From the NCBI GenBank assembly GCA_023257625.1, contig JALRBW010000004.1:1-57559 (forward strand): DNA of 57,559 nucleotides. Reading direction: 5' to 3'. This DNA is from Flavobacteriaceae bacterium. GTDB lineage: Bacteria > Bacteroidota > Bacteroidia > Flavobacteriales > Flavobacteriaceae. A model generated the notes under the pieces. It saw only the letters and a program-made list of their open reading frames with translations. It was not told where the DNA came from and ran no database searches. A program made the position numbers and the translations under genes. Position 1 is the stretch's first letter. Each line of letters begins with the position of its first letter. This document shows positions 53,637 through 56,469 of this stretch, piece by piece.

Positions 53637-54245
53637 ATGGCTTTTACACTTCCCGACTTACAATACGATTATAACGCATTAGAACCGCATATAGACGCGC
53701 GTACTATGGAAATCCATCATGGCAAACACCACAATGGATATACGACAAACCTAAATAACGAAATTGCAGGTACTGCACTTGAGAATGAAACAATTGAATC
53801 CATTTTAAAAAATTTGGACTTAGATAATAAGGCTGTTCGAAATAATGGGGGCGGATACTTCAACCACTGCCTTTTTTGGAATATTATGGGTCCAAACAAA
53901 GGAGGGCTTCCTACAGGAGCTTTAGCAAAAGCCATAGATAATGCTTTTGGTTCTTTCGAAGATTTTAAAAATACATTTTCTAAAGCTGCAGCTACACAAT
54001 TTGGTTCTGGCTGGGCTTGGCTTTGTGTCCATAATAATGGGGTATTAAAAGTTTGTGCCACAGCCAATCAAGACAACCCTCTAATGCCAGGAATAGGTTG
54101 TGGAGGAACTCCCATACTTGGCCTTGATGTTTGGGAACATGCCTATTATTTAAACTATCAAAATAGACGTCCAGATTATATTGAAGCTTTTTTTAATGTG
54201 ATTGATTGGGATGCAGTTGCAACTCTTTATACTCAAGGAGCTTAA
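53637..54245 (+). CDS. sodA: superoxide dismutase, Fe/Mn family
   Basis: 202 residues from the ATG at 53637 ([18 protein letters not shown] is the standard N-terminus; a longer frame would run across the promoter). Metal ligands sit in [16 protein letters not shown], and [10 protein letters not shown] (Asp and His). The Gln in [12 protein letters not shown] is typical of the Mn-specific subgroup, though cambialistic use is possible. It converts superoxide to H2O2 and O2 in the cytoplasm. The first hairpin of the following tandem element, 15 bp after the stop, may end its transcript. Confidence 0.93.
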
Positions 54246-54260
54246 ACTTTTTATAAAAAT

Positions 54261-54331
54261 AAAAGGGAAGAATGAATTCCTCCCTTTTGCCCCAAATCTT
54301 ACCATGAACTTAACCTACTTATGTTCTGGTA
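54261..54331 (-). ncRNA. candidate structured small RNA, copy 1 of a tandem pair
   Basis: A 71-bp unit. Read on the minus strand: 5' hairpin ACCA-GAAC / GTTC-A-TGGT with a 13-nt loop, linker AAGATTTGGGGC, then a 13-bp terminator-like hairpin with a T-rich tail (TTTTATTTTT). The first 43 nt are identical to copy 2. In the terminator stem one A-T pair of copy 2 is C-G here (compensatory), and another is G-U only on this strand. On the plus strand the same hairpin may serve as the sodA terminator. TATATTCG lies upstream at a position matching the -7 box. Confidence 0.5.
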
Positions 54332-54428
54332 CTACGAATATATTAGTGTATGTATTGAGTAATTTCTCAAACTCGATTAAATAAAATTTTATTAGTTAAA
54401 GTGAATATTTAGGGTTAGGCCTTAAAAT

Positions 54429-54499
54429 AAAAAGGAGGAATAAATTCCTCCTTTTTGCCCCAAATCTTACCATGAACTTAACCTACTTATGTTCTGGTA
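54429..54499 (-). ncRNA. candidate structured small RNA, copy 2 of a tandem pair
   Basis: Same layout as copy 1: the 43-nt 5' part (54457-54499) is base-for-base identical, and the perfect 13-bp hairpin AAAAAGGAGGAAT/ATTCCTCCTTTTT (54429-54456) ends it. The flanks of the two copies are unrelated, so conservation is confined to the unit. On the minus strand CATCTTTG ends 3 bp before the conserved block with ATTG 17 bp further upstream, a possible promoter. It also lies 71 bp after the amidotransferase gene, so it could be part of that gene's 3' end. Confidence 0.5.
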
Positions 54500-54570
54500 T
54501 ATCAAAGATGGTTTAAGAAATCAATTTCAATTTAATAATTCGTTTAAATGCATATTTTGTCGATAATATG

Positions 54571-56469
54571 TCAATAAGCCCTTTGATTATTTTTCTCGAC
54601 AAAGTTAATAAAGGCTTGATTTACTACTCTACACCCTCCTGGTGTGGGATAATTACCCGTGAAATACCAGTCACCTAAATTTTTAGGGCAAGCTTTGTGA
54701 AGACCTTCTACCGTTTGAAAAATAATTTCTACTTCAGCTTTAATGCTTTCGTTTTTTAGCATTTGAGCCATTTTTCTAGAAATTTGCTCCGCAGTAAAAG
54801 GAGCATAAAGCTCTTTAACATAATTAGGCGGCGCAAACTCTTTATTTTTACTGCTTTCTAAACATTTTGTATAAATAGCATTTACTATTTTGTCTTTATT
54901 TCCAACCTCATCATGCAAAGCTAATGCTGCTCTAAAAGCTATAAACTCTTCTAGTTTAGCCATATCTATACCATAGCAATCAGGATATCGGATTTGGGGA
55001 GCACTCGATACTACTACAATCTTTTTTGGCCCAAGCCGATCTAACATTCGTAAAATACTTTTCTGAAGGGTTGTACCTCTAACTATACTATCATCAACAA
55101 TTACTAAATTATCAGTGGGAGCAATAATTCCATAAGTAATATCATATACGTGGGCCACAAGATCATCTCTACCGCTATCTTCAGCAATAAAAGTTCTCAG
55201 TTTAACATCTTTAATTGCTATTTTCTCAATTCTAGGCTTAAGATTTAACAGTTTTGTTAAGGACTCTAAATCTGGTTTTTTTTCTTTTGTAAGAGTCTCT
55301 TTAAATTTAAATCGAACATGATTTTGAACCGCACCAATTAATCCATAAAATGAGGTTTCTGCAGTATTGGGAATAAAAGAAAAGACTGTGTTTTCTAAAT
55401 CGCCCCCAATAGATTTATGCACTAAAGGGAAAAGAGCATCTCCTAAATCTTTACGCTCTTGATAGATTTCGGCATCATTACCCCTTGAAAAATATATCCT
55501 TTCAAAAGAACAGGCTCTTTTTTCTTTAGGTTCTATTATTTGTTTAACTGAAGCTTCACCTCCTTTTTTGGTAATGAGTGCACTTCCTGGATCGAGTTCT
55601 TTAATACTTGAAAAAGGTATATTAAAGGCAGTTTGTATTGCTGGACGCTCTGAGGCTACAACAACAATTTCATCATCAGTATAATAATAAACTGGTCGAA
55701 TCCCAACAGGATCTCGTAAAACAAAAGAATCCCCATGCCCAAATAAACCGGCCATCGCATATCCTCCATCAAAATTTTTTGCAGATTTTCTCAAAATTTT
55801 GGAAATTTTTAATCGCTCAGCAATTAAGGGTGAAGCTTCCATTTTTGAATAACCTTCCTCTCTTAAGTTTTTGTAAATTTTTGCTACAGCGTCATCCAAA
55901 AAGTGTCCAATTTTTTCCATGACCGTAACTGTATCTGCTTTTTCCTTTGGGTGTTGACCTAATTCAATTAGGTTGTTAAAAAGCTCATTTACATTAGTAA
56001 GATTAAAATTTCCTGCAACAATAAGATTTCTATGCATCCAGTTATTTTGACGTAAAAAGGGATGAACGCTTTCTATATTGTTCTTCCCAAACGTACCATA
56101 GCGAACGTGACCAAGCATTAACTCCCCAACATAAGGCACTTCCTGTTTAAGTTGTTCTGGATTTGCTAATAGGTTTGGATTTGACTCTAATTGTTTTTGT
56201 ATTCGAGAGTTTATGATCTTAAAAATCTTTTGAATGGGCTGATTTTCAGCAGAACGCACACGACTTATATATCGTTGCCCTGGCAACATGTTGTATTTAA
56301 TACTTGCAAAGCCAGCTCCATCTTGCCCTCTATTGTGTTGCTTTTCCATCAACAAATACATTTTGTTGATTCCATATAACGCACTTCCGTATTTTTCTTT
56401 ATAAAAAGACAGCGGTTTTTTTAACTGTAATAGGGCAATTCCACATTCGTGTTTAATCGCATCGCTCAT
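54571..56469 (-). CDS. long PurF-type amidophosphoribosyltransferase-like protein
   Basis: 632 residues, longer than typical PurF (470-510). An 8-residue propeptide (MSDAIKHE) precedes Cys9, the N-terminal nucleophile of class II glutamine amidotransferases, followed by HNRGQDGAG and HVRYGTFG. The phosphoribosyltransferase motif VIVDDSIVRGTT lies near residue 455. Extra sequence lies between the domains (TLTKEKKPDLESLTKLL) and at the C-terminus. It may be the purine-pathway enzyme or a paralogue. It lies 11 bp after a PfkB kinase gene, so they are probably an operon. Confidence 0.82.
   Translation of the reverse strand: MSDAIKHECGIALLQLKKPLSFYKEKYGSALYGINKMYLLMEKQHNRGQDGAGFASIKYNMLPGQRYISRVRSAENQPIQKIFKIINSRIQKQLESNPNLLANPEQLKQEVPYVGELMLGHVRYGTFGKNNIESVHPFLRQNNWMHRNLIVAGNFNLTNVNELFNNLIELGQHPKEKADTVTVMEKIGHFLDDAVAKIYKNLREEGYSKMEASPLIAERLKISKILRKSAKNFDGGYAMAGLFGHGDSFVLRDPVGIRPVYYYTDDEIVVVASERPAIQTAFNIPFSSIKELDPGSALITKKGGEASVKQIIEPKEKRACSFERIYFSRGNDAEIYQERKDLGDALFPLVHKSIGGDLENTVFSFIPNTAETSFYGLIGAVQNHVRFKFKETLTKEKKPDLESLTKLLNLKPRIEKIAIKDVKLRTFIAEDSGRDDLVAHVYDITYGIIAPTDNLVIVDDSIVRGTTLQKSILRMLDRLGPKKIVVVSSAPQIRYPDCYGIDMAKLEEFIAFRAALALHDEVGNKDKIVNAIYTKCLESSKNKEFAPPNYVKELYAPFTAEQISRKMAQMLKNESIKAEVEIIFQTVEGLHKACPKNLGDWYFTGNYPTPGGCRVVNQAFINFVEKNNQRAY

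What the first reader, a model, noticed from the sequence alone, without database searches (positions are those of the whole stretch)
54261..54499. Tandem pair of 71-bp structured elements, candidate small RNAs between sodA and a PurF-type gene
Two copies start 168 bp apart. 43 bp are identical in both (54289-54331 and 54457-54499), while flanking sequence is unrelated. Each carries a 5' hairpin and a terminator-like hairpin on the minus strand. The terminator stem differs by one compensatory base-pair change and one change that stays paired only on the minus strand (G-U), which points to an RNA read leftwards. Near-consensus -7 boxes precede both copies. This could be a duplicated regulatory RNA, or a duplicated 3' end of the amidotransferase mRNA.
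Basis: partly seen in the sequence, partly recalled or inferred. Interest (0 to 1): 0.72.

Follow-up and report, generated by a model that had tools for sequence, protein, structure and literature searches.

The report
Tandem small RNAs across Flavobacteriaceae
The two repeated elements look like two copies of a small regulatory RNA gene that is found, usually as a small cluster at the same chromosomal spot, in most of the flavobacterial genomes searched, and whose presence closely follows that of one regulator protein.

Summary
Confirmed: two 76-nt copies, 168 bp apart, 43 bp identical. They belong to an sRNA family without a match in Rfam 15. A covariance model finds it in 272 of 299 genomes of the family at E<=0.1, 242 at E<1e-4 by my count. 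In 41 loci it has 1-7 copies, directly downstream of the purF-type gene in 40. The core is nearly invariant; the terminator stem is rewritten with compensation (99.8% of cells paired, 11 of 12 pairs changed on both sides). Most copies have a -7 box and two upstream repeats 20 bp apart that resemble LytTR-regulator sites. An orphan LytTR response regulator between priA and rpsF occurs in 27 of 30 sRNA-rich but 6 of 45 sRNA-poor genomes. sRNA-bearing genomes without it mostly lack the repeats (6 of 8 tested); in several the sRNA sits in the regulator's own slot, which arose at least twice. Transcription, binding and targets are untested.

The parts
54252..54332 (-). sRNA copy 1 (81-position model match; predicted 5' end near 54331)
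   Evidence: model R1, 104.3 bits; 5' end inferred from the -7 box
54420..54500 (-). sRNA copy 2 (81-position model match; predicted 5' end near 54499)
   Evidence: model R1, 108 bits; 5' end inferred from the -7 box
54300..54331 (-). copy 1, 5' hairpin with GUAGG loop
54468..54499 (-). copy 2, 5' hairpin with GUAGG loop
54289..54299 (-). copy 1, nearly invariant single-stranded linker AGAUUUGGGGC, candidate pairing or binding site
   Evidence: unpaired; role inferred
54457..54467 (-). copy 2, nearly invariant linker AGAUUUGGGGC
   Evidence: its GGGGC is partly paired in the fold, which included extra downstream sequence; role inferred
54250..54288 (-). copy 1, intrinsic terminator hairpin and T-rich tail
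   Evidence: helix 2
54420..54456 (-). copy 2, intrinsic terminator hairpin and T-rich tail
   Evidence: (inverted repeat 54429-54456)
54335..54342 (-). copy 1, -7 box TATATTCG
   Evidence: placed by the logo
54503..54510 (-). copy 2, -7 box CATCTTTG
   Evidence: placed by the logo
54373..54400 (-). copy 1, two regulator boxes 20 bp apart (TTTAACTA, TTAATCGA), LytTR-like
   Evidence: score 18.8; pattern match without mismatch
54540..54567 (-). copy 2, two regulator boxes 20 bp apart (ATTATCGA, TTAAACGA), LytTR-like
   Evidence: (score 13.8)
54571..56469 (-). purF-type amidotransferase gene, upstream anchor of the array in 40 of 41 loci
53640..54245 (+). sodA (Fe/Mn superoxide dismutase), convergent neighbour in 36 of 41 loci

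Best explanation
The pair is a two-gene array of an approximately 75-85 nt small RNA of the family Flavobacteriaceae. Each copy is its own transcription unit, read leftwards, with an activator-type promoter (two repeats near -68 and -48, a -7 box, no clear -33 box), a 5' hairpin, a nearly invariant linker and an intrinsic terminator. The likely activator is the orphan receiver-LytTR regulator encoded between priA and rpsF, which would switch on the boxed copies together. The RNA most likely works in trans by pairing its invariant loop and linker with several mRNAs, with copy number setting the dose. Shown by comparison: RNA structure, strand, conservation, array, position, promoter pattern, regulator co-occurrence. 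Inferred: transcription, regulator binding, base pairing, targets.
For: Conservation through the family. Covariation on 114 distinct rows: 95.8% of cells paired against 86.3% shuffled and at most 57% slid; covariation score 0.333 against 0.133 and at most 0.082. Strand: helix-1 pairs that are G-U in 81 and 29 of 114 rows. Stops in all three sense frames of the core. Promoter logo over 97 copies. Two boxes, 20 bp apart in 77 of 93 training copies; median score 17.9 against a 99% shuffle limit of 8.2; 88 of 97 copies above 8.2. Regulator in 27 of 30 sRNA-rich against 6 of 45 sRNA-poor genomes, Fisher p 3e-11 uncorrected for kinship. Boxes in 26 of 27 regulator-bearing and 0 of 3 regulator-less family genomes. 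Genus: boxes in 14 of 14 regulator-bearing genomes tested; boxless in 3 of 5 without it.
Against: No transcript, footprint or target data were seen. G005 (68% complete) and G011 (89%) have boxes but no regulator found; G203 has the regulator and no boxes by score. Six sRNA-poor genomes have the regulator beside priA; four of them are 64-84% complete and one (G329) has a cousin RNA, but G278 and G047 are 99% complete and showed only weak matches. The box pattern in the host genome is no commoner than its control (124 against 147, up to 1 mismatch). A 12-base linker complement is not enriched there (13, the two copies included, against 23, up to 1 mismatch). Pairing with neighbouring genes gave nothing firm. 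The boxes are AT-rich and only resemble other LytTR sites. 9 of 97 non-variant copies score below 8.2.
Confidence: 0.68

Rival explanations
1. The RNA is a protein-binding decoy (as CsrB-type RNAs are, recalled): the invariant hairpin and linker hold an RNA-binding protein, and multiple copies set how much is held.
For: Stem bases in helix 1 hardly vary although pairing alone would allow changes. Arrays of 1-7 copies, two or more in 32 of 41 loci, suit titration. No target pairing was found.
Against: One core motif per RNA rather than the repeated sites of classical decoys (recalled). The unpaired linker is also what a pairing seed looks like. The cousin RNA in L362 keeps loop and linker sequence but has another hairpin.
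Confidence: 0.25
2. The elements are 3' ends of the purF-type mRNA, used as terminators and released by processing.
For: Directly downstream of purF on the same strand in 40 of 41 loci; in the window the distal box of copy 2 begins 3 bp past the purF stop codon.
Against: The -7 box is conserved over 97 copies and 88 of 97 score for the two repeats. Boxless copies lie between priA and rpsF in other genomes.
Confidence: 0.05
3. A real sRNA family, but the boxes are read by another factor; the LytTR regulator follows the sRNA only through shared ancestry and genome reduction.
For: LytTR sites share no common consensus (PMC4847170, passages). Larger genomes hold up to 19 related regulators. The p-values ignore kinship.
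Against: The host assembly has one LytTR protein. Boxes are missing in most sRNA-bearing genomes without the regulator, in the genus and in three other genera. The sRNA took the regulator's own slot at least twice.
Confidence: 0.2
4. A dispersed repeat or mobile element with terminator-like palindromes and no regulatory role.
For: Tandem copies, varying copy number; five copies with nearly the same flanks in G467.
Against: One main locus, nearly invariant core, promoter and structure preserved; matches in 220 of 236 genera at E<=0.1.
Confidence: 0.01

Closest known systems
FopS sRNAs of Bacteroides thetaiotaomicron (RF04319; PMC11697453, passages seen)
   Same: Multicopy paralogous sRNAs of a Bacteroidota species with a conserved part and a terminator.
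   Different: FopS has 14 paralogues and a single-stranded 5' stretch. This RNA scores 16.3 and 19.8 bits against a gathering score of 56, starts with a hairpin, sits mostly in one array and has LytTR-like boxes.
AgrA and RNAIII of Staphylococcus aureus (PMC4227749, passages seen)
   Same: A LytTR regulator binding two direct repeats and switching on a regulatory RNA.
   Different: RNAIII is one RNA beside its regulator's operon (much longer, recalled); here short RNAs, often several, not beside the regulator in the 49 regulator loci scanned.
YpdB and its yhjX site in E. coli (PMC4847170, passages seen)
   Same: Direct repeats GGCATTTCAT; here 31 of 95 upstream regions hold it with up to 2 mismatches (200 shuffled motifs: median 1, 95% limit 12, maximum 26).
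   Different: YpdB's only target is a protein gene. The repeat period here is mostly 20 bp.
Qrr sRNAs of Vibrio (recalled, no call)
   Same: Several near-identical sRNAs with an invariant core under one response regulator.
   Different: No sequence relationship known to me; Qrr uses sigma-54 and Hfq (recalled).
Flavo-1 motif (RF01705; PMC2864571 and PMC9723704, passages)
   Same: An RNA motif widespread in Flavobacteriaceae.
   Different: No Flavo-1 match at gathering in the window or 20 family loci, nor in the matches up to E 10 listed for 401 bases of the window.
Rfp sRNAs of Flavobacterium psychrophilum (PMC9723704, section 20 read)
   Same: 85 new transcripts were detected there; one of them could be a member of this family.
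   Different: Rfp18, the one studied there, is described with a third stem-loop; this RNA has two hairpins.

Membership tests
FopS (RF04319) | Covariance-model score at or above the gathering score of 56 | tested here: not met
   16.3 bits in the window, 19.8 in L045
[quoted passage not shown]
   A 5' hairpin precedes the linker
Flavo-1 (RF01705) | Covariance-model match | tested here: not met
   Absent
Independent intergenic bacterial sRNA gene | Own promoter, intrinsic terminator, no coding potential | tested here: met
   By sequence only:
Independent intergenic bacterial sRNA gene | Discrete transcript in the cell | not testable with these tools
   No transcript data held
Trans-acting base-pairing sRNA | Nearly invariant unpaired region | tested here: met
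   Linker and loop
Trans-acting base-pairing sRNA | Conserved complementary targets | tested here: inconclusive
   Only one 12-mer in the host genome, and neighbouring genes
LytTR-controlled promoter | Two repeats of 9-11 nt with 11-13 nt spacer (PMC4847170, passages) | tested here: met
   Two repeats, start to start 20 bp in 77 of 93; counted as 9-nt repeats the spacer is 11
LytTR-controlled promoter | Regulator present together with the sites | tested here: met
   Family: boxes in 26 of 27 with it, 0 of 3 without. Genus: 14 of 14 with it, 2 of 5 without. Exceptions G203, G005, G011
LytTR-controlled promoter | Direct binding and activation | not testable with these tools
   Needs gel shift, footprint, reporter

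The most novel reading that the evidence does not exclude
The LytTR regulator and the sRNA array form one dedicated, family-wide regulatory circuit whose main output is the RNA. When the regulator is lost, the RNA is either lost or freed from control, and on at least two occasions a boxless RNA gene has come to stand in the regulator's own chromosomal slot between priA and rpsF. In small-genome lineages the circuit would run without phosphorylation, since the usual receiver aspartate is gone.
Probability: 0.45. Interest if true: 0.82.

Novelty: new member of a known kind. Interest (0 to 1): 0.7.

Why it matters
[quoted passage not shown] This would be a very widespread regulatory RNA of the family, with a ready candidate regulator, so that its signal and targets can be tested directly. 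The pattern of joint loss also offers a natural experiment on how an RNA and its regulator part ways.

Tried and rejected
Rfam as the answer: no match at gathering; weak matches lie below the gathering scores. Folding for strand choice: rejected, both strands fold. Coding: rejected, stops in all three sense frames of the core. Homologues outside the family: non-family matches score at most 39.3 bits; of the six such genomes I looked at four (L228-L231), which show only terminator-like hairpins; the two were not looked at. One named record is titled Lentimicrobium (L298), possibly a binning error; not followed.

Targets: a 12-base linker complement in the host genome (13 against 23 for the reversed control); duplex energies against start regions of 11 gene groups, where the largest mean gains over shuffled RNA were -4.5 kcal/mol for the OmpA-like gene c5 and -3.0 for sodA (hairpin) and -3.1 for purF, -2.8 for purN and -2.6 for the regulator (linker); c5 and sodA in detail, without a conserved duplex that convinced me. 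These stay open leads. Other regulator sites in the host: 124 against 147 control; the six exact matches besides copy 1 showed no convincing -7 box at the right distance by eye. An sRNA copy beside the regulator: none in 49 regulator loci (best 24.4 bits). Regulator boxes at its own promoter: 2 of 46 above the 99% null. Literature: six core strings in no held paper; in the listings no title or abstract start describes this family; most subscription papers are not in that library, and no supplements could be read.

To bear in mind: the 30 sRNA-rich genomes come from the best-scoring rows, not at random. The 45 are 20 of 27 without a match and 25 of 30 with E>1e-4 (my count of the listing). Three weak rows of L088 were dropped between A3 and A5, and five genus loci were added. 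The box model was trained on 93 upstream regions that include the family loci judged, but not the genus or L064. The genus copies were scored over three offsets, against a null made with one; the lowest regulator-bearing genomes are G021 (10.9) and G004 (11.0 and 8.4), against 99% limits of 8.2 and 9.6. Gene names such as purN, rnhA, kbl, OmpA-like are by eye or recalled; purF-type, pfkB, sodA, UvrD, LytTR and receiver domains come. One search printed loci without turning all to one strand; one search replaced it.

Full report
What is in the window. Two elements of 76 nt lie 168 bp apart between a purF-type gene and sodA, whose 3' ends face each other. Of these, 43 bp are identical. Read on the minus strand each gives a 5' hairpin, a linker and a terminator hairpin with a T-rich tail. 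The host genome (1.93 Mb in 75 contigs, 91% complete) has only these two strong matches.

It is an RNA family. In the genus, BLAST finds it in 22 of 38 genomes, the host included, and in 7 of 7 of high quality. A covariance model from 20 genus rows finds it in 272 of 299 genomes of the family at E<=0.1, in 231 of 249 of high quality, and in 220 of 236 genera. By my count of that listing 242 of 299 have E<1e-4; the other 30 matches are weak. A second model, run on 196 genomes of the order and 395 of the phylum, gives strong matches in this family only; matches elsewhere score at most 39.3 bits. Some genomes of the family have none, one of them in the genus that otherwise mostly carries it (G814, genus g128). 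Rfam 15 has no match at gathering to the element in the window or in 20 family loci.

Structure and strand. On 116 copies (114 distinct), 95.8% of cells pair, against 86.3% when shuffled and at most 57% when one arm is slid. The terminator helix pairs in 99.8% of cells, and 11 of its 12 pairs have changes on both sides. This alignment was fitted to the model, which leans towards the structure. Helix 1 is mostly invariant, so it gives little covariation; one of its 11 pairs is unpaired in 98 rows, a bulge in the common form. Two helix-1 pairs are G-U in 81 and 29 of 114 rows, which would be mismatches on the other strand. The RNA is therefore read leftwards in the window. The core CATAAGTAGGTTAAGTTCATGGTAAGATTTGGGG is nearly invariant and has stops in all three sense frames.

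Position. In 41 loci (the window and 40 from the best-scoring family genomes) 111 strong copies were found, 1-7 per locus, two or more in 32, and on one strand within each locus. The purF-type gene is directly upstream on the same strand in 40 of 41. SodA is the next convergent gene in 36 of 41. In four loci with purF but without sodA there (L074, L076, L079, L081) the copies are still present, so sodA is not needed.

Promoter. Over 97 copies the -7 box reads TAYWTTTG, with T in 99% at one position, and there is no clear -33 TTG. Two repeats of the form TTYAWCNA start near -68 and -48, 20 bp apart in 77 of 93 training copies; 88 of 97 copies score above the 99% shuffle limit. LytTR regulators bind two repeats of 9-11 nt with 11-13 nt between (PMC4847170, passages), and the E. 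coli YpdB repeat given there, GGCATTTCAT, occurs with up to 2 mismatches in 31 of 95 upstream regions. The resemblance is suggestive, not proof. In 14 of 111 copies another conserved promoter replaces the boxes; all 14 are the copy farthest from purF.

Regulator. The host assembly has one LytTR protein, a receiver-LytTR response regulator between rpsF and priA. A profile of 11 genus rows finds it in 27 of 30 sRNA-rich family genomes, all 27 beside priA or rpsF, and beside priA in 6 of 45 sRNA-poor genomes (Fisher p 3e-11, kinship not corrected). One of the six, G329, has a cousin RNA; G278 and G047, 99% complete, are true exceptions as far as one search shows. The three sRNA-rich genomes without the regulator (G223, G102, G175) have boxless copies; of the 27 with it, 26 have boxes and one, G203, does not by score. 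In the genus, 14 of 14 tested genomes with the regulator have boxes. Of five without it that could be tested, G003, G012 and G029 are boxless, while G005 (68% complete) and G011 (89%) have boxes. G025 has the regulator and no sRNA found, but it is 75% complete and nearly identical in PriA to G001, which has it.

The slot. In G003, G029 and G175 the sRNA lies between priA and rpsF where the regulator gene is missing. G015 (priA side) and G012 (rpsF side) show the same at contig ends. A PriA tree of 36 rows, with four of these five, needs two origins for this arrangement. No sRNA copy lies beside the regulator in 49 regulator loci, so it does not look like a simple leftover. I have no mechanism for this.

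Receiver. Of 48 orthologue rows, 27 keep the usual phospho-aspartate and 21 have S, A or K, among them all 15 rows of this genus. Signalling without phosphorylation in these lineages is inference.

Function. Acting in trans by base pairing is my best guess, from the nearly invariant linker and loop and the multiple copies. The searches for targets that I could run found none that convinced me. A decoy for a protein remains open.

What is known. The kind is known: multicopy sRNAs such as FopS (PMC11697453, passages) and, recalled, Qrr; a LytTR regulator driving a regulatory RNA is known from AgrA and RNAIII (PMC4227749, passages). This family has no Rfam match and its core strings are in no held paper. 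A transcript of it may already be listed among the Rfp RNAs of F. psychrophilum (PMC9723704, section 20 read) or the candidate sRNAs of F. columnare (PMC5395568, passages); I could not see those tables.

Noticed in passing
L362, 1478-1570 (genome G329): A cousin sRNA keeps ATAAGTAGGTT and AATTTGGGGC but has another hairpin (z -6.9). It lies between genes that look by eye like an asparaginase and a cyanophycin synthetase, and may share targets with the main family.
   Followed up: partly
L071 7747-7828 and 13 further copies in other loci: A variant copy, always the one farthest from purF, carries another conserved promoter (TTTGTTATTT..CACAATACCAGTAATTTAG) and often GGGACGAAA at the linker end; one copy per array may be under different control.
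   Followed up: partly
L017, L021, L064: The sRNA occupies the chromosomal slot of its presumed regulator, with at least two origins.
   Followed up: partly
L104 1075-1773 and orthologues: The receiver phospho-aspartate is replaced by S, A or K in 21 of 48 regulator rows.
   Followed up: no
L227 (genome G467): Five copies about 240-243 bp apart, the later ones with almost the same flanks, which points to recent tandem expansion.
   Followed up: no
L088, 7361-7752: Three partial copies of the 3' half of the element, about 151 bp apart.
   Followed up: no
5' region of the OmpA-like neighbour gene c5, in 26 of 41 loci: A conserved 5' untranslated region with short ACTTAA stretches that could pair weakly with the sRNA; it gave the largest gain over shuffled RNA (for the sequences).
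   Followed up: partly
L024 and L025 (genomes G032, G033): Diverged elements keep AAGATTTGGG and the terminator but not the usual hairpin.
   Followed up: no
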